This document shows positions 52,346 to 60,966 of a stretch of 64,000 nucleotides of DNA, in pieces. The notes below the pieces were generated by a model that was not told the origin of the DNA, made no database searches, and saw only the letters and a list, made by a program, of their open reading frames with translations. The stretch is from the NCBI RefSeq assembly GCF_022899935.1, contig NZ_JALJCJ010000001.1, forward strand, positions 518,053 to 582,052, read 5' to 3'. The stretch is from Shinella curvata (lineage in GTDB: Bacteria > Pseudomonadota > Alphaproteobacteria > Rhizobiales > Rhizobiaceae). The translations under genes and the position numbers were made by a program. The stretch's first letter is position 1. Each line of letters opens with the position of its first letter.

Positions 52346-53968
52346 CTATTCGGCCGGCTGGAGCGCGGGTGCGGCGCCCGGGATCGGGGCCTCGTCACGC
52401 TGGTAGCCGAGGATTGTCATGGTCACGTTGTAGGCCATGATGAGAGCCCCCAGGAGGAACAGCCCGCCGCCGACGGCACGCAGCACGTAGTAGGGGAACA
52501 TGGCTGCGATCGTTTCGGCGAACGAATAGACCAGGAAGCCCTGTTCGTCGTATTCGCGCCACATCAGGCCCTGCTGGATGCCGGCAACCCACATGACGGC
52601 CGCGTAGACGACGATGCCGAGGGTGGCGAGCCAGAAGTGCCAGTTGACCATGCGGATCGAATAGAGCCGCTCTCTCTTCCACAGTTTCGGAACGAGGAAA
52701 TAGACCGCGCCGAAGGTGATAAGGCCGTTCCAGCCGAGCGCACCCGAGTGAACGTGGCCGATCGTCCAGTCCGTGTAATGGCTGAGCGAGTTGACCGACT
52801 TGATCGACATCATCGGACCTTCGAAGGTCGCCATGCCGTAGAAGGCGATGGCCATGACCATCATGCGCACGATCGGGTCGGTACGGATCTTGTCCCAGGC
52901 GCCCTGGAGCGTCATCAGGCCGTTGATCATGCCGCCCCACGAGGGCATCCAGAGCATGATCGAGAAGACCATGCCGAGTGTCTGCGCCCAGTCCGGCAGC
53001 GCGGTATAGTGCAGATGGTGCGGCCCGGCCCAGATATACATGAAGATCAGGGCCCAGAAGTGGATGATCGACAGGCGGTAGGAGTAGACCGGGCGGTTCA
53101 CCTGCTTGGGCACGAAATAATACATCATGCCGAGGAAGCCGGCCGTCAGGAAGAAGCCCACAGCATTGTGGCCGTACCACCACTGGGTCAGCGCATCCTG
53201 CACGCCCGAGAAGGCCGAATAGCTCTTCACGCCAAGGAACGAGACCGGGACGGCCAGGTTGTTGACGATATGCAGCATGGCGACGGTGACGATGAAGCCG
53301 AGATAGAACCAGTTGGCCACATAGATGTGCGGTTCCTTACGGGTCATGATCGTGCCGAGGAAGGCGATCAGATAGGCGACCCAGACGACGGTCAGCCACA
53401 GGTCGACATACCATTCCGGCTCGGCATATTCCCTGCCCTGCGTGATGCCGAGCAGATAGCCGGTGGCGGCCATGACGATGAAGAGCTGATAGCCCCAAAA
53501 CACGAACCAGCCGAGATTGCCGCCGAACAGGCGCGCGCGCGAGGTACGCTGCACGACATAGAACGAGGTGGCGATCAGCGCATTGCCGCCGAAGGCGAAG
53601 ATGACGGCCGAGGTGTGCAGCGGACGTGTGCGCCCGAAGTTCAGCCAGGGTTCGATGTTGAGATCGGGGAAGGCCAGCTGGGCGGCGATGACGACGCCCA
53701 CCAGGAAGCCGACGACGCCCCAGAATACCGTCGCGATGACGCCGTACTTGATGACCTCGTCGAAATAACCGTCGCCGTCGTGCGACGGCAATACGGGCGA
53801 TGCGGGCGCGAACGTGATGTGCCGCACCATGAGAATCGTTGCCCCGAGGAGCACGAAGAAGAGAACCCACATATGGCTCTCGAAGAGCCGGTCATGGGCA
53901 AAGGCCGCACCGAGAAGCGCAAGGAACGCTCCTACAGCGAGGATAATCGTTTCGGTCAAGTATTTCAC
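52346..53968 (-). CDS. ccoN: Cbb3 cytochrome c oxidase subunit I (FixN/CcoN)
   Basis: A 540-residue catalytic subunit with about twelve membrane helices, carrying the haem b and b3-CuB centres where O2 is reduced with high affinity. Ligand His are visible in [27 protein letters not shown] and [19 protein letters not shown] at 53968 is selected because GGGGGA lies seven bases upstream and the length fits FixN; the frame is open for 65 further codons. An FNR-type box is 103 bases upstream. It is the first gene of ccoNOQP. Confidence 0.97.
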
Positions 53969-54070
53969 GTTGGCATCCCCCAACTGGTCAAGGTCCCGCA
54001 TCGACCGGCTCCCACACGGAATCGGCCTTTGCGCTCGATTGAGCCTTCGCAGATGCGTAAGGAAGCATCC

Positions 54071-54084
54071 TTGACATGGATCAA
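54071..54084. promoter_or_regulatory. FNR/FixK-type box between ccoN and the hemerythrin gene
   Basis: TTGACATGGATCAA differs at one base from TTGAT-N4-ATCAA. It is 103 bases before ccoN and 94 before the divergent hemerythrin start, so it could activate either gene or both. Confidence 0.85.
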
Positions 54085-54177
54085 GGCACGATACGGAAGC
54101 GGGCGGCATCAAAGGACAGGTTGACGCAGCCGCACGTCGGACGACGGCGCGGCCCTCCCCCAACGAGGGAACACGAG

Positions 54178-54660
54178 ATGACGGATTACAATGGTATCGC
54201 CCGGCTGCTTTCGGATCGCCCGACGGACGCCGTTTCGCTCGACTGGCTGAAGAAGGCCCATGACGCCCAGCTGACGCTCTGCACGGCGCTTGAGGAAATC
54301 GCCGACAGCCTGCCGGCCAACGTCAACCGGCAGAAGTGCATATATGCCGCCAAATCATTGATTCCGCTTGTCAATGGCGTTCATCGCTATGAAGAGGAAG
54401 CCGTCTTCCCGCTTCTCGAGCGCCAGGCATCCGGCGACGGGGAACTTGTCTCCTCCATCGCGCGGCTAAAATTCGAGCATGTCGAGGACGAGTGCTTCGC
54501 GGAGGAACTGACCGATACGCTCACACGGCTGGGGAGCGGTGACGGCACGGTCAACGCGGAAGCCGCGGGCTACATGCTCCGCGGCTTCTTCGAGTCGATC
54601 CGGCGGCATATTGCCTTCGAGCAACAGTTCATGCTGCGCGGCGACCGGTTGGCCTCCTGA
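54178..54660 (+). CDS. Hemerythrin-like (HHE) domain protein
   Basis: A 160-residue four-helix protein that may bind a di-iron centre. Candidate ligands are His in LKKAHDAQL, His and Glu in [10 protein letters not shown], His in LKFEHVEDE and His in IRRHIAFE. The start is ATG at 54178, just after GAG; upstream codons lack support. It is divergent from ccoN and shares its FNR box, which suggests expression under low O2 and a role in oxygen or nitric oxide handling. Its stop is 3 bases from that of the convergent PAS gene. Confidence 0.88.
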
Positions 54661-55613: not shown

Positions 55614-56549
55614 TCAAGTAATAAGGGAACGCTTGATATTCCAGCGATCGTGATACCAGAGCCATTGGCCGGGATATTCCCGCACCCACTGTTCGACCTT
55701 GTCGTTCAGCATCTGTGCCGTCGCATCGACATCGACTGCACCGTTCTCCTTGCGCGGGATGTCCATCGCCGGCTCGAGCTCCAGCCGGTAGCGATTATCA
55801 GGCAGACGGATGCAGCGCGCCGGATAGACCTCGCAATTGAACTGGCGCACCAGCTTGGCCAGAAGGGGATTGGTCTGCACGTCGCGCCCGAAGAATTTCG
55901 TCGGCAAGCCTTTGGTGAACTTCTGGTCGACGAGCACGCCGACCGGCCCGCCGGCATCGAGCTTGCGCGCCAGCGTGAAGGAAGAGCCGGCATGCGAAGG
56001 CACGAGGTGCCCCATGCGCGCACGCCGGAATTCGAACACCTTTTCGGCGACATAAGGATTGTTCGGCGGGCGGAAGAGCACCGTCACATCCAGCCCGAAA
56101 GCGGCGCCGGCGACCGGCAGCAGCTCGAAATTACCGCTATGGGCAGTAAAGACGATGAAGGGGCGCGGATTGTCGCGCAGGTCCACGAAAAGCGGAATGC
56201 CGGACACTTCGATACGACCCGGCGTCGTCTTTTCCGGGTCAAAGTCGAACAGCTTGTCGAGGAAGACATACTCCGCGGCAAGCCGGCCCATATTGCCCCA
56301 GGCGTCGAGCGCGATCGCCTGGATGTCCGCCTCGGATTTTTCCGGGAAAGCATTGCGCAGATTGGTCAGCGTCAGCTTGTGCCGGCTCGTCTTCGGCCCG
56401 ATCCAGCGCACAAGACGGTCAGCGAAATTGATCGCCCCATCCGCCGGAAACAATTTTAGAAGATTGAGCAGGCCGAAGGCGAACTGCGCCACCAGCCAGT
56501 CCTTGGTGTTGCGCAGCGCCAGGACGAGGCGTGTGACGAGCATCTTCAT
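55614..56549 (-). CDS. lpxXL: Lipid A very-long-chain acyltransferase LpxXL
   Basis: A 311-residue inner-membrane acyltransferase of the LpxL/HtrB family. The catalytic HX4E motif is His137-Glu142 in AHSGNFE. In rhizobia this member transfers 27-hydroxyoctacosanoate from AcpXL to lipid A. An amphipathic N-terminal helix (about 18-34) anchors it. It is the last gene of acpXL-fabZ-fabF2-fabF1-adh-lpxXL, 4 bases after the dehydrogenase. Confidence 0.95.
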   Translation of the reverse strand: MKMLVTRLVLALRNTKDWLVAQFAFGLLNLLKLFPADGAINFADRLVRWIGPKTSRHKLTLTNLRNAFPEKSEADIQAIALDAWGNMGRLAAEYVFLDKLFDFDPEKTTPGRIEVSGIPLFVDLRDNPRPFIVFTAHSGNFELLPVAGAAFGLDVTVLFRPPNNPYVAEKVFEFRRARMGHLVPSHAGSSFTLARKLDAGGPVGVLVDQKFTKGLPTKFFGRDVQTNPLLAKLVRQFNCEVYPARCIRLPDNRYRLELEPAMDIPRKENGAVDVDATAQMLNDKVEQWVREYPGQWLWYHDRWNIKRSLIT

Positions 56550-57595: not shown

Positions 57596-58882
57596 TCAGG
57601 CCGGCTCGGCCGTCATCACGAGGCTGGCGTTCTGGCCGCCGAAGCCGAAGGAGTTGGAGAGAACCGCCGAAACCTGCTTGTCGCGCTTCACGTTCGGCAC
57701 GACGTCGAGCTGGATCGTCGGGTCGGGGTTCGTGTAGTTGATGGTGGGCGGAAGCGTCCCGGTCAGCATGGTCTGGATCGAGAACACCGCCTCGACCGCA
57801 CCGGCCGCCGTCAGCGTGTGGCCGATCATCGACTTGTTGGACGAAACCGCAATACCGGCAAGCTTGTCACCGAAGACGGTCGACATGGAGAGATACTCCA
57901 TCTTGTCGTTCTCCGGCGTCGAAGTGCCGTGCGCATTGATATAGCCGATGCCGCTCTCGTCGATGCCGGCATCTTCCAAGGCCGCGCGGATCGTCGCGAT
58001 GGCCGGGCCACCGTCCGGCGATGAGCGCGTGCGGTGGAAATGGTCGGCCTTCTCGCCGCAGCCCTTGAGGATGCCGAGCACCTTTGCGCCGCGAGCAATG
58101 GCCGATTCCAGCGATTCCAGCACGAGCGTCGCCGCACCTTCGGCGATGACGAAGCCGTCGCGGTCCTTGCTGAACGGCTTGGAGGCCTTGGTCGGCGGAT
58201 CGTTCTGGGTGGAAAGCGCAGAAAGCAGCGCGAAGCGGATGAGGGCTTCCGCCGTCACCGAGCCGTCGGTGCCGACGGTCAGCGCGCGGTCGGTGCGCCC
58301 CTGGCGGATCGCCTCGACGCCAAGCTGGATGGCCGTGGCACCGGAGGCACAAGCGGTCGACAGGGTCACCGGCAGGCCGCGCGTGCCATAACGGTCGGAA
58401 AGGCGCTCGGAGATAGAGCCGAAAGCCCAGGCTTCGTGCAGCGCCGGTTCCGCCTTCTCGCGCAACGCGGCAAGGAAACGGTCATAGGCGTCGCCCGGAC
58501 GCTGCGACGGCGGCGCGCGGTCGGCGAGTGCAAAACGCTCACGCCAGTCGGGCTCGATCGGCGGGGCGGCGAGGAACAGCGGACCGCCAAAATCGCCGGA
58601 GAGGCCGGCCTGCGCCAGTGCCTCGTCCGTCGTCTCGCGGGCATAAGCGTAGGAGCGCTCGACCGGATTTTCCGTGGGTACGGTGATGAAATCGACCGTG
58701 CCGGAAATGCGGGTGTTCAGCCCATCAACCGGGAAGCGGCTGATGTCGTGGATGCCCGAGACGCCGCCCGTCAGCGCGGTCCAGTTGTCCTTGAGACCTT
58801 GTCCGAGCGAGGTGACGACCCCCATGCCGGTGACGGCGACGATGGGGCGACCCAGATGATCCCTGTAAGCGGCGTTCGTCAT
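57596..58882 (-). CDS. fabF1XL: Beta-ketoacyl-ACP synthase FabF1XL (catalytic)
   Basis: A 428-residue KAS II-type enzyme that condenses malonyl units onto the growing chain on AcpXL. The Cys-His-His triad is intact: Cys178 in STACASG, His316 in NAHGTST and His353 in IGHTLTAAG, with Lys348. It overlaps no neighbour and is 9 bases from the second ketosynthase gene. Its probable partner is that inactive-looking synthase. Confidence 0.96.
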   Translation of the reverse strand: MTNAAYRDHLGRPIVAVTGMGVVTSLGQGLKDNWTALTGGVSGIHDISRFPVDGLNTRISGTVDFITVPTENPVERSYAYARETTDEALAQAGLSGDFGGPLFLAAPPIEPDWRERFALADRAPPSQRPGDAYDRFLAALREKAEPALHEAWAFGSISERLSDRYGTRGLPVTLSTACASGATAIQLGVEAIRQGRTDRALTVGTDGSVTAEALIRFALLSALSTQNDPPTKASKPFSKDRDGFVIAEGAATLVLESLESAIARGAKVLGILKGCGEKADHFHRTRSSPDGGPAIATIRAALEDAGIDESGIGYINAHGTSTPENDKMEYLSMSTVFGDKLAGIAVSSNKSMIGHTLTAAGAVEAVFSIQTMLTGTLPPTINYTNPDPTIQLDVVPNVKRDKQVSAVLSNSFGFGGQNASLVMTAEPA

Positions 58883-58891
58883 GGCCGACCC

Positions 58892-60082
58892 TCACTTCTC
58901 TGCGCTAAGAATTGCGACGCCCTCGCCGCGCGAATGGCCGACCGTCGTGACGACGGCCGTCGTGGCGGCGCCCGCCATGGCGGTCTCGGCCTTGGCATCG
59001 AATGGAGCGACCTTTACACCGGCACCAAGGGTGAGCGCGGCCAGCGCGAGACCCAGCGGGAACTGCGCTTCAAGTGCCTGCCCCGTCACGGCGCTGTAGC
59101 CGCGCACCGCGCTGCCGGCGAAGCGCTGGCCAAGCCATGCCTTTTCACGCGCCGTCGCCTCATGGGCGCCCGATGCGCCGGAGAACACGACGGCTCCCTC
59201 GGCGTCCGCGCCTTCGGCAAGACGATCGAGTCGGGCTTCGAGCCGGCCTTCGTCGCGCGAACCACGGTCGCCGCCGATGGCGTCGATCGTCGCATAGATG
59301 CGCGCGCCACGGGCTTCCGCATGTTCGCGGGATTCGAGGATGAGGAAGGCCGAGGCCGTTCCGGTGATGATGCCGCCGCCAGCCTTTTCGTCACGCGACC
59401 AAAGCGGCGTCCAGCCACCCGTCGCATGGGCGCCAATGGCTTCATAAAGCAGGATGACGTCCTGCCGCTCGGCCACCAGCGCGCTGCCGACAAGCGTATG
59501 CGTCGACTGGCCGGCACGGATCCGGTGGAAAGCCGTCTCGACGGCGCTGATGCCGGCGGCTTCCTCGCCCATGAAGGTACGCGAGGAACCGGTCACCTTG
59601 TGCACGATGGAAATATTGCCGGCGAGCAGGTTGGAGAGCTGCGCGAGGAAGAGCGTCGGGCGCAGCTCCGTCGTCAGCTTCTCGTTGAGCAGACGCTCGC
59701 GGTCGTTGCGCTTCAGGCCCTCGTCGACGATCAGCGAGTCGACCGCGATGTCGCGCTCGCCGCCGCCGGCCGCGACGATCATGTCCATGGTGCCGCAGGC
59801 TTCGGCATTGTCCTTGAAGCCCGCGTCATCGAGCGCGAGGCCGGCGGTGAAGACGCCGAGGCGCTGCCAGTTTTCCATCTGGCGCTGGTCGCCACGCTTG
59901 GCGATCTGCTGGTTCCAGTCGATTTCCGGCATAGGATGTACCGGATAAGGCGCGAAGCGTTCCGTGTCGATCTTCGTGACCGGCGCGTTCGCGGCACCGA
60001 GGATCGACACATGCGCCTCGGCCCCGACACCCTGACAGGTGACGATGCCGACGCCTGTGATCACCACATCGTTGTTGGCCAT
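58892..60082 (-). CDS. fabF2XL: Ketosynthase-fold protein FabF2XL lacking the catalytic triad
   Basis: A 396-residue thiolase-fold protein with KAS sequence (VVITGVGIVTCQG at the start and SNLLAGNISIVHK in the middle). The residue aligned with the active-site Cys is Glu174 (MGEEAAG). The NAHGT motif is replaced by a GASGAHE stretch, and GHTLTAAG aligns with GQALEAQF, so neither catalytic His is present. The start at 60082 is one base after fabZ ends. It cannot condense by the normal mechanism. It resembles chain-length-factor subunits of type II polyketide synthases and may pair with FabF1XL. Confidence 0.93.
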   Translation of the reverse strand: MANNDVVITGVGIVTCQGVGAEAHVSILGAANAPVTKIDTERFAPYPVHPMPEIDWNQQIAKRGDQRQMENWQRLGVFTAGLALDDAGFKDNAEACGTMDMIVAAGGGERDIAVDSLIVDEGLKRNDRERLLNEKLTTELRPTLFLAQLSNLLAGNISIVHKVTGSSRTFMGEEAAGISAVETAFHRIRAGQSTHTLVGSALVAERQDVILLYEAIGAHATGGWTPLWSRDEKAGGGIITGTASAFLILESREHAEARGARIYATIDAIGGDRGSRDEGRLEARLDRLAEGADAEGAVVFSGASGAHEATAREKAWLGQRFAGSAVRGYSAVTGQALEAQFPLGLALAALTLGAGVKVAPFDAKAETAMAGAATTAVVTTVGHSRGEGVAILSAEK

Positions 60083-60083
60083 C

Positions 60084-60566
60084 TTACTTTCCTTCCGCCG
60101 ACGCTGCGAGCGCCTCGAACAAACCCACCTCGCCGGCACGCTTGCGAACGATGTCCGCCAGCGGCACTTCGGCAAAGGGCATGGTGCGCAGCTTCAATTG
60201 CGCATCGCAGACCTTCTTGCCGGCCGATGTGATGCGCGTCTTGGTCACGGCATAACCCGAACCGTCATGCTCCAGCACGGCCTCGATGTCGAGCACGGCA
60301 TCCGGCTCGACGAAGGTGCGCATCTTGGCGCCGTCGACGCTCATCAGGAATGGCATGGCCGCGAAATCGGTGGCGGCGAGCACGAGGAAGCCGGAGGCCT
60401 GCGCCATCGTCTCGATGAGCAGCACGCCCGGAACGAGCGGCATGCCGGGAAAATGCCCTTCGAAAACAGGGCTCTTGGAGGGAACGACCGAGCGGGCGGT
60501 GAGCACGCGGCGCGCGCCGTCAATGGCCTCCACGCGGTCGATCATCTGGAAATATTCAAGCAACAT
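60084..60566 (-). CDS. fabZXL: FabZ-type 3-hydroxyacyl-ACP dehydratase of the VLCFA cluster
   Basis: A 160-residue HotDog dehydratase. The catalytic pair is His38 and Glu52 in EGHFPGMPLVPGVLLIETMAQ (family motif HFPG...PG...E..AQ). It removes water from 3-hydroxyacyl-AcpXL during elongation. The start is ATG at 60566; the longer frame upstream runs through a hairpin and is not supported. It follows acpXL by 121 bases. Confidence 0.94.
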   Translation of the reverse strand: MLLEYFQMIDRVEAIDGARRVLTARSVVPSKSPVFEGHFPGMPLVPGVLLIETMAQASGFLVLAATDFAAMPFLMSVDGAKMRTFVEPDAVLDIEAVLEHDGSGYAVTKTRITSAGKKVCDAQLKLRTMPFAEVPLADIVRKRAGEVGLFEALAASAEGK

Positions 60567-60687: not shown

Positions 60688-60966
60688 TCAGGCCTTGGCG
60701 GCCCGCAGTTCGTCGATCTTCGCGCAGAGGTTCTTCAGGACGAAATACTCTTCCGTCGCGACCTTGCCTTCGTTGACGTCCTGCGTCCACTTTTCCAGCG
60801 GAATCTTGATGCCGAATTCCTTGTCGATCGCAAAGACGATGTCGAGGAAGTCGAGGCTGTCGATGCCGAGATCGTCGATGGTGTGGCTCTCGGGCGTGAT
60901 CGTCTCGCGATCGATCTCGCTCGTCTCAGCAATGATGTCGGCAACCTTGTCGAATGTAGCAGTCAC
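60688..60966 (-). CDS. acpXL: Acyl carrier protein AcpXL
   Basis: A 92-residue specialised acyl carrier protein. Ser37 in [10 protein letters not shown] receives the 4'-phosphopantetheine arm. It carries the 27-hydroxyoctacosanoic chain until LpxXL transfers it to lipid A. The start is GTG at 60966 with GAGGT upstream. It is the first gene of the six-gene operon. Confidence 0.97.

What the first reader, a model, noticed from the sequence alone, without database searches (positions are those of the whole stretch)
58892..60082. FabF2XL is a catalytically dead ketosynthase resembling a chain-length factor
The sequence shows Glu174 in place of the active-site Cys, and both catalytic His motifs are altered (NAHGT lost; GH changed to GQ), while adjacent FabF1XL has the full triad. 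In type II polyketide synthases an inactive KS-beta pairs with KS-alpha and sets chain length. Inference: FabF1XL-FabF2XL may be a heterodimer that determines the C28 length of the lipid A acyl chain.
Basis: partly seen in the sequence, partly recalled or inferred. Interest (0 to 1): 0.75.

Follow-up and report, generated by a model that had tools for sequence, protein, structure and literature searches.

The report
Dead ketosynthase partner for lipid A
Next to the enzyme that builds the extra-long fatty acid of many soil bacteria's outer membrane sits a look-alike that has lost its active site in every relative examined, and it probably works as that enzyme's obligatory partner rather than as an enzyme, much as in polyketide factories.

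Summary
FabF2XL (58892-60082, minus strand) has Glu174 in place of the ketosynthase Cys and Gly302 in place of the first His. Gln335, in place of the second His, is a local feature: 122 of 134 orthologues keep that His. Glu replaces Cys in 134 of 134, and the gene is under purifying selection (dN/dS 0.10-0.22). In 133 of 134 orthologues FabF1XL follows directly (the 134th lies at a contig end), with Cys and first His in all 133. In 150 genomes of the order both families occur in the same 38. AlphaFold2 packs FabF2XL and FabF1XL confidently (pTM 0.92) in an arrangement that Foldseek matches across both halves to the PfaC ketosynthase-chain length factor (CLF) didomain. FabF2XL shares with 7 of 7 Streptomyces CLF rows an acidic residue just before the missing Cys. 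In Agrobacterium a fabF2XL insertion abolishes the very-long-chain acid and a fabF2XL plasmid partly restores it (published). Best reading: a non-catalytic CLF-like subunit, so FabF1XL works only as a heterodimer. That it sets the C28 length is plausible but untested. The public name 'beta-ketoacyl-ACP synthase' is misleading. Descent from polyketide CLFs is unresolved. I found no statement of this in the open literature searched.

The parts
58892..60082 (-). fabF2XL, KS-beta/CLF-like dead ketosynthase, 396 aa; NCBIfam NF005084 (named there beta-ketoacyl-ACP synthase)
   Evidence: (595 bits, cut-off 320)
59561..59584 (-). SRTFMGEE motif, codons of residues 167-174; Glu173 and Glu174 stand where FabF has Ala162 and Cys163
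   Evidence: Glu at both columns in 134 of 134 orthologues
59177..59179 (-). Gly302 in place of catalytic His303 (FabF numbering)
59078..59080 (-). Gln335 in place of catalytic His340; lineage-specific, His in 122 of 134 orthologues
59759..59767 (-). Gly106-Gly108, at the FabF 107-109 acyl-pocket gate (the Ile108 column is Gly in 129 of 134)
57596..58882 (-). fabF1XL, active partner ketosynthase, Cys178/His318/His355; NCBIfam NF005076; starts 9 bases after the fabF2XL stop codon
58349..58351 (-). codon of the FabF1XL nucleophile Cys178
58559..58564 (-). FabF1XL Pro107-Pro108 at the same gate (Pro at the Ile108 column in 133 of 133 partners)
58025..58045 (-). FabF1XL loop 2 (D280-R286), kept in FabF1XL and deleted in FabF2XL
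60084..60566 (-). fabZXL, hydroxyacyl-ACP dehydratase; 1 base between its stop codon and the fabF2XL start
   Evidence: best NCBIfam scores are below the curated FabZ cut-offs
60688..60966 (-). acpXL, dedicated acyl carrier protein
   Evidence: NF005079, 190 bits
56554..57582 (-). adh2XL, zinc-type dehydrogenase, candidate reductase of the cycle
   Evidence: ADH_zinc_N, ADH_N; its role is inferred
55614..56549 (-). lpxXL, lipid A very-long-chain acyltransferase
   Evidence: NF005120, 497 bits

Best explanation
FabF2XL is a pseudo-ketosynthase: a thiolase-fold protein that can no longer make the acyl-enzyme or do the condensation. It pairs with FabF1XL to form an obligate KS-alpha/KS-beta-type heterodimer that elongates the AcpXL-bound chain to C26-C30 for lipid A. 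FabF1XL supplies Cys-His-His, the Lys and both gating loops. FabF2XL supplies the other half of the dimer interface and, by inference, the far end of the acyl tunnel. Shown here: loss of catalytic residues and of loop 2 in the orthologues, purifying selection, strict pairing with FabF1XL, and a predicted complex that matches a KS-CLF didomain. Shown in print: FabF2XL is needed for the very-long-chain acid. Inferred: that FabF1XL is inactive without FabF2XL because they are one enzyme, that the chain crosses the interface (gate residue Gly in FabF2XL, Pro in FabF1XL), and that this sets the chain length. Confidence about 0.8 for the non-catalytic obligate partner and about 0.5 for chain-length control.
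For: Glu for Cys in 134 of 134; first His and Lys335 absent in the 133 rows that reach them; loop 2 deleted in 134 of 134. The neighbour keeps Cys 133 of 133, His303 133 of 133, Lys335 133 of 133, His340 132 of 133 with 1 cut. FabF1XL follows within 173 bases on the same strand in 133 of 134; the other lies at a contig end. dN/dS of FabF2XL 0.10-0.22 in 10 comparisons. FabF2XL (E to 1e-60) and FabF1XL (E to 1e-90) occur in the same 38 of 150 genomes of the order, on one contig side by side in 37 and separated by contig ends in 1. In the class FabF2XL in 15 of 289 and FabF1XL in 14 of those 15 and nowhere else (E to 1e-100); the odd one is the contig-end FabF2XL. Gene order acpXL-fabZXL-F2-F1-adh-lpxXL in 79 of 80 named loci, the 80th cut after F1 by the end of its contig. 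A Bradyrhizobium plasmid has the F2-F1 pair without the other four genes in the 11 kb fetched. F2 and F1 tree distances correlate (r 0.82, 0 of 2000 permutations as high, 21 pairs), though shared species history alone would also give this. AlphaFold2: FabF2XL alone pLDDT 92.7, pTM 0.93; F2-F1 as one chain pLDDT 91.0, pTM 0.92. Foldseek match of that chain to 6riw, PfaC KS-CLF (rank 22 by E-value): TMq 0.73, rmsd 6.4, 946 columns, against 0.44-0.46 for the other 49 chains listed, single ketosynthases. Acidic residue before the lost Cys in 7 of 7 CLF rows and 21 of 21 FabF2XL rows, in 0 of 43 active KS rows; one CLF has Glu at the Cys place. The actinorhodin CLF chain shows EQAGG there. Published: PMC11901934, section 2.2 and passages.
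Against: No biochemistry on either protein. The joined chain used a read-through linker, and AlphaFold2 may impose the ketosynthase dimer it knows; there was no negative control (both jobs used) and the model coordinates could not be inspected. Most orthologues keep the second His, unlike all 7 CLF yardsticks (Arg), and FabF2XL lacks the Lys and loop 2 Asp that all 7 keep, so it is not simply a CLF. By sequence profile its nearest solved relatives are FabF, ahead of the KS-CLF chains. The conserved charged set (R110, R168, E173, E174, E387) could serve an unrecognised reaction. The published mutant shows requirement, not length control, and complementation was only partial.
Confidence: 0.8

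Rival explanations
1. FabF2XL is a malonyl-ACP decarboxylase of the KSQ type that makes the starter or extender for the pathway, its Glu mimicking Gln at the Cys place.
For: Gln or Glu at the Cys place also occurs in CLFs, and KSQ decarboxylation is known for Cys-to-Gln ketosynthases (recalled). FabF2XL is required for the product.
Against: The first catalytic His and the Lys are absent in the 133 rows that reach them and the second His in at least 11 of 134; these residues are thought to drive decarboxylation (recalled). Loop 2, one of two loops that gate FabF (PMC7138838, passages), is deleted. The C28 acid is probably made by elongating a long acyl primer, so no starter decarboxylase is needed (recalled).
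Confidence: 0.06
2. FabF2XL is an enzyme with a new active site built from the invariant Arg168, Glu173, Glu174 and Arg/Glu residues near the C-terminal GHxRGEG stretch.
For: Arg168, Glu173, Glu174 and Glu387 are invariant in alignments of 14 and 68 sequences and at 97 percent or more of 134.
Against: The FabF segment aligned to the motif (residues about 140-180) lies in the dimer interface (PMC5206705, section 9 read), which could explain the conservation without catalysis. CLFs show a similar acidic pair. The one His that most members keep is lost in 11 of 134.
Confidence: 0.07
3. FabF2XL is a scaffold or chaperone (for AcpXL, FabZXL or LpxXL), not a half of the ketosynthase dimer.
For: The gene sits in a tight gene cluster with these partners.
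Against: It keeps the full ketosynthase fold, and one plasmid stretch carries only F2 and F1 of the six genes.
Confidence: 0.05
4. FabF1XL and FabF2XL each form homodimers, and FabF2XL is a redundant relic.
For: FabF homologues normally form homodimers (PMC5206705).
Against: Purifying selection, co-occurrence, and the mutant phenotype.
Confidence: 0.02

Closest known systems
KS-beta / chain length factor of type II polyketide synthases (actinorhodin CLF, 1tqy chain B)
   Same: Ketosynthase homologue without the nucleophile Cys, encoded next to an active KS; acidic residue followed by Gln or Glu in place of Ala-Cys; first His lost; small residue at the Ile108 gate.
   Different: Glu rather than the usual Gln at the Cys place; second His mostly kept (Arg in 7 of 7 CLFs); Lys335 and loop 2 lost (Lys335 and Asp265 kept in 7 of 7 CLFs); product is a reduced fatty acid for lipid A; dead subunit encoded first, KS second; common origin with CLFs neither supported nor rejected (p-AU 0.504).
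KS-CLF didomain of polyunsaturated fatty acid synthase (PfaC, 6riw)
   Same: Predicted arrangement of the two halves matches; a KS-CLF used for long fatty acids.
   Different: One polypeptide in a megasynthase (KS first), against two separate proteins acting with a free ACP; 14 percent identity over the alignment.
ApeO-ApeC of aryl polyene biosynthesis
   Same: Heterodimer of active KS and degenerate partner in Gram-negative bacteria (PMC8358021, passages).
   Different: ApeC is about half size; FabF2XL is full length, although paralogous copies in one genus have a shortened or divergent C-terminal half.
FabF (KAS II)
   Same: Nearest solved structures by sequence profile and by fold.
   Different: FabF has Cys-His-His, Lys and two gating loops; FabF2XL lacks Cys, first His, Lys and loop 2, and has loop 1 rebuilt.

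Membership tests
Beta-ketoacyl-ACP synthase (FabF), as named by NF005084 and in print | Nucleophile Cys with two catalytic His | tested here: not met
   Cys to Glu 134 of 134; first His absent in the 133 rows that reach it
NF005084 / PRK06519 protein family | Score over the curated cut-off | tested here: met
   595 bits, cut-off 320
KS-beta / chain length factor | Ketosynthase fold | tested here: met
   pLDDT 92.7 model; first two Foldseek matches are a FabF and chain A (the ketosynthase) of an ishigamide KS/CLF entry
KS-beta / chain length factor | Active Cys replaced, typically by Gln, preceded by an acidic residue | tested here: met
   Glu-Glu in FabF2XL; the 7 CLF yardsticks have E/D, then Q (5), E (1) or G (1). 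Glu, not the typical Gln. Six of the 7 are annotated as CLF; the 7th (L174) I took as CLF from its place after the KS
KS-beta / chain length factor | Both catalytic His lost | tested here: not met
   Second His kept in 122 of 134 FabF2XL; Arg in 7 of 7 CLFs. Met in the window itself
KS-beta / chain length factor | Encoded with an active KS-alpha | tested here: met
   Same 38 of 150 genomes, side by side in 37; 14 of 15 in the class, the 15th at a contig end
KS-beta / chain length factor | Obligate heterodimer with KS-alpha | tested here: inconclusive
   Confident predicted packing that matches 6riw; no negative control, no biochemistry
KS-beta / chain length factor | Shared descent with known CLFs | tested here: inconclusive
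   Free tree puts FabF2XL with FabF1XL at 81/87, not starred; FabF2XL + CLF not rejected, p-AU 0.504
KS-beta / chain length factor | Controls product chain length | not testable with these tools
   Needs lipid A mass spectrometry of gate mutants
KSQ decarboxylase | Gln at the Cys place with both His kept (recalled definition) | tested here: not met
   Glu in 134 of 134, and first His absent in the 133 rows that reach it

The most novel reading that the evidence does not exclude
Alphaproteobacterial lipid A synthesis uses a ketosynthase-chain length factor enzyme of its own. FabF2XL, carrying an invariant Glu-Glu pair, is a structural half whose opened gate (Gly at FabF Ile108), opposite a Pro-Pro gate in FabF1XL, lets the acyl chain run across the dimer interface and measures it to C26-C30. 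The Glu-Glu pair is the same acid-Gln/Glu solution as in polyketide CLFs, reached either independently or by an unrecognised common descent.
Probability: 0.42. Interest if true: 0.8.

Novelty: new variant of a known kind. Interest (0 to 1): 0.62.

Why it matters
The very-long-chain acid of lipid A is a signature of rhizobia and their relatives, and how its unusual length is reached is, as far as I know, an open question. If FabF2XL is a KS-beta, the two 'FabF' proteins of the cluster are one enzyme and not two, the databases name the gene wrongly, single-protein assays of FabF1XL would fail for a simple reason, and chain length becomes testable by point mutations in a dead subunit. It would also extend the KS-CLF principle from polyketides and polyunsaturated fatty acids to a structural membrane lipid.

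Tried and rejected
Pseudogene or sequencing error: rejected (purifying selection, 134 orthologues). Alternative alignment register with a Cys-His-His triad: none; the sequence at the Cys column is GEE throughout. Recent duplication of FabF1XL: not supported; the two form separate clades on long branches with 100/100 support, and whether they are sisters is not settled. Claim that FabF2XL belongs to the polyketide CLF clade: neither shown nor rejected. KSQ decarboxylase, and hot-dog malonyl-ACP decarboxylase (MadA/MadB, PMC8666670, abstract and passages): considered; different residues or a different fold. The first script alignment of orthologues used the wrong strand for minus-strand loci; it was discarded and redone. 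Loop 1: the alignment is uncertain by one residue there (and one search place different window residues on Phe400), so I claim only that it is rebuilt; Phe is at that column in 2 of 134.

Literature: searches and 75 of the open-licence PMC library (8 of 10 searches). What I saw: PMC11901934 (passages and section 2.2), PMC5206705 (passages and section 9), PMC8666670 (outline with abstract, and passages); passages only of PMC5613085, PMC7663294, PMC9386255, PMC5539429, PMC8358021, PMC7138838, PMC7949117, PMC12664062, PMC13311796. No paper was read whole. None of the passages that I saw says that FabF2XL lacks the catalytic residues or acts as a chain length factor; this does not exclude it elsewhere. 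The original cluster papers in subscription journals did not appear in these searches and are only recalled.

Full report
1. What is there. The window belongs to a Shinella-like genome (nearest named relative listed, Shinella zoogloeoides, FabF2XL 91 percent identical). The minus strand carries acpXL, fabZXL, fabF2XL, fabF1XL, adh2XL and lpxXL in that order. There is 1 base between the fabZXL stop and the fabF2XL start, and 9 bases between the fabF2XL stop and the fabF1XL start. This is the known cluster for the very-long-chain acid of lipid A. NCBIfam, and the one paper seen that gives a function in a table, name FabF2XL a beta-ketoacyl-ACP synthase.

2. The active site. Aligned with E. coli FabF (fetched), FabF2XL has Glu at Cys163, Glu at Ala162, Gly at His303, Ser at Lys335, Gln at His340, and no residues at 265, 268 and 270 (loop 2). 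Over 134 orthologues other than the window (134 distinct sequences, 80 clusters at 90 percent): Cys column Glu 134; Ala162 column Glu 134; loop 2 columns deleted 134; His303 column never His and Lys335 column never Lys in the 133 rows that reach them; His340 column His 122, Gln 7, Asn 2, Thr 2, 1 cut. The 54 rows found by a profile all have Glu; the other 80 were found with patterns that include the motif and are weaker evidence on this point. The partner FabF1XL keeps Cys 133 of 133, His303 133 of 133, Lys 133 of 133, His340 132 of 133 with 1 cut. In FabF, loops 1 and 2 gate entry of acyl-ACP (PMC7138838, passages). FabF1XL keeps both; FabF2XL has lost loop 2, and loop 1 is rebuilt (flanking Gly mostly kept, Phe400 column Phe in 2 of 134, Asn404 column Gly in 127).

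3. Selection and pairing. dN/dS of FabF2XL in 10 comparisons of the window with relatives is 0.10-0.22 and of FabF1XL 0.05-0.11. FabF1XL lies within 173 bases downstream on the same strand in 133 of 134; the other FabF2XL (L014) is at a contig end. In 150 genomes of the order FabF2XL occurs in 38 and FabF1XL in the same 38, side by side in 37 and split by contig ends in one (G413). In 289 genomes of the class FabF2XL occurs in 15 and FabF1XL in 14 of those 15 and in no other at E 1e-100. In a sample of 299 genomes of the phylum 28 have FabF2XL, all in the same class. Gene order is conserved in 79 of 80 named loci and cut by the contig end in the last. A Bradyrhizobium plasmid has the F2-F1 pair with none of the other four cluster genes detected in the 11 kb fetched; the rest of that plasmid was not searched for them.

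4. Structure. FabF2XL alone folds with pLDDT 92.7 and pTM 0.93; the first PDB matches are a FabF and the ketosynthase chain of an ishigamide KS/CLF entry. Read as one chain with FabF1XL (the genes happen to be in frame), AlphaFold2 gives pLDDT 91.0 and pTM 0.92 for 828 residues; 11 residues are below 50, and the only such segment of 3 or more is the linker, 396-404. The joined model matches 6riw, PfaC KS-CLF, at TMq 0.73 (rmsd 6.4, 946 columns, rank 22 by E-value), whereas the other 49 chains in the list, single ketosynthases, reach 0.44-0.46. A match limited to one half could not reach 0.73, so both halves and roughly their packing are matched. PfaC KS-CLF has been proposed to be an intramolecular dimer (PMC13311796, passage). 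Limits: the order of KS and dead half is reversed between the two, there was no negative control, and there were no coordinates to inspect.

5. Comparison with chain length factors. In seven Streptomyces KS/CLF pairs (six annotated as CLF, one taken as such from its place) the CLF has Glu or Asp at the Ala162 column (7 of 7) and Gln (5), Glu (1) or Gly (1) at the Cys column. The 43 active KS rows (15 FabF/FabB, 7 KS-alpha, 21 FabF1XL) have Ala or Gly, then Cys; 21 FabF2XL rows have Glu-Glu. The actinorhodin CLF chain shows EQAGG. The FabF Ile108 gate is Ser, Thr or Ala in the CLFs, Gly in 19 of 21 FabF2XL rows, Pro in 21 of 21 FabF1XL rows. Ile108 is described as one of two residues that control access to the FabF pocket, and Ile108Phe mutants elongate long chains less well, though its role is called unclear (PMC5206705, passages). 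Differences: the CLFs keep Lys335 and Asp265 and have Arg at His340. A maximum-likelihood tree makes FabF2XL one clade (100/100), puts it next to FabF1XL without firm support (81/87), and does not reject a FabF2XL + CLF clade (p-AU 0.504).

6. Function. In A. fabrum C58 an insertion in fabF2XL removes the very-long-chain acid from lipid A, and a plasmid with a fragment containing fabF2XL partly restores it (PMC11901934, section 2.2 and passages). Restoration by fabF2XL alone argues that FabF1XL was present and not sufficient. In Bradyrhizobium ORS278 mutants in acpXL, fabZXL, fabF1XL or fabF2XL could not be obtained (PMC5613085, passages). The simplest account is one heterodimeric enzyme. In FabF the segment about 140-180, which contains the Cys, packs in the dimer interface against loops about 260-270 and 398-402 of the other subunit (PMC5206705, section 9). 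A highly conserved stretch of FabF2XL (141-177) aligns to that segment, so its invariant charged residues may contact the gating loops of FabF1XL; this is inference.

7. What stays open. Length control, the role of Glu173/Glu174, descent, and the meaning of the mostly kept second His.

Noticed in passing
The second F2 keeps the GEE motif in all 4 copies seen, but its C-terminal half is divergent or shortened (392, 329 and 255 aa in L160-L162), reminiscent of the half-size ApeC.
   Followed up: partly
L169 4965-7486 (NZ_CP100605.1): A Bradyrhizobium plasmid typed as conjugative carries a fabF2XL-fabF1XL pair next to a methyltransferase gene, without acpXL, fabZXL, adh2XL or lpxXL in the 11 kb fetched.
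   Followed up: partly
57596-58882: FabF1XL itself is unusual: the FabF gate GSGxGG is replaced by APPxE, the stretch up to about residue 150 is unlike FabF, and loop 2 has two Arg (FHRTRS) that E. coli FabF lacks.
   Followed up: partly
59078-59080: The second catalytic His, kept in 122 of 134 FabF2XL, is Gln in Shinella and in one distant row (L144), Asn or Thr in four others: apparently separate late losses of a residue that the family otherwise keeps.
   Followed up: partly
52346-54163: Large minus-strand ORF that looks like a haem-copper oxidase or NO reductase large subunit, and a haemerythrin-like ORF at 54076-54660 on the other strand (both recalled resemblances, not searched).
   Followed up: no
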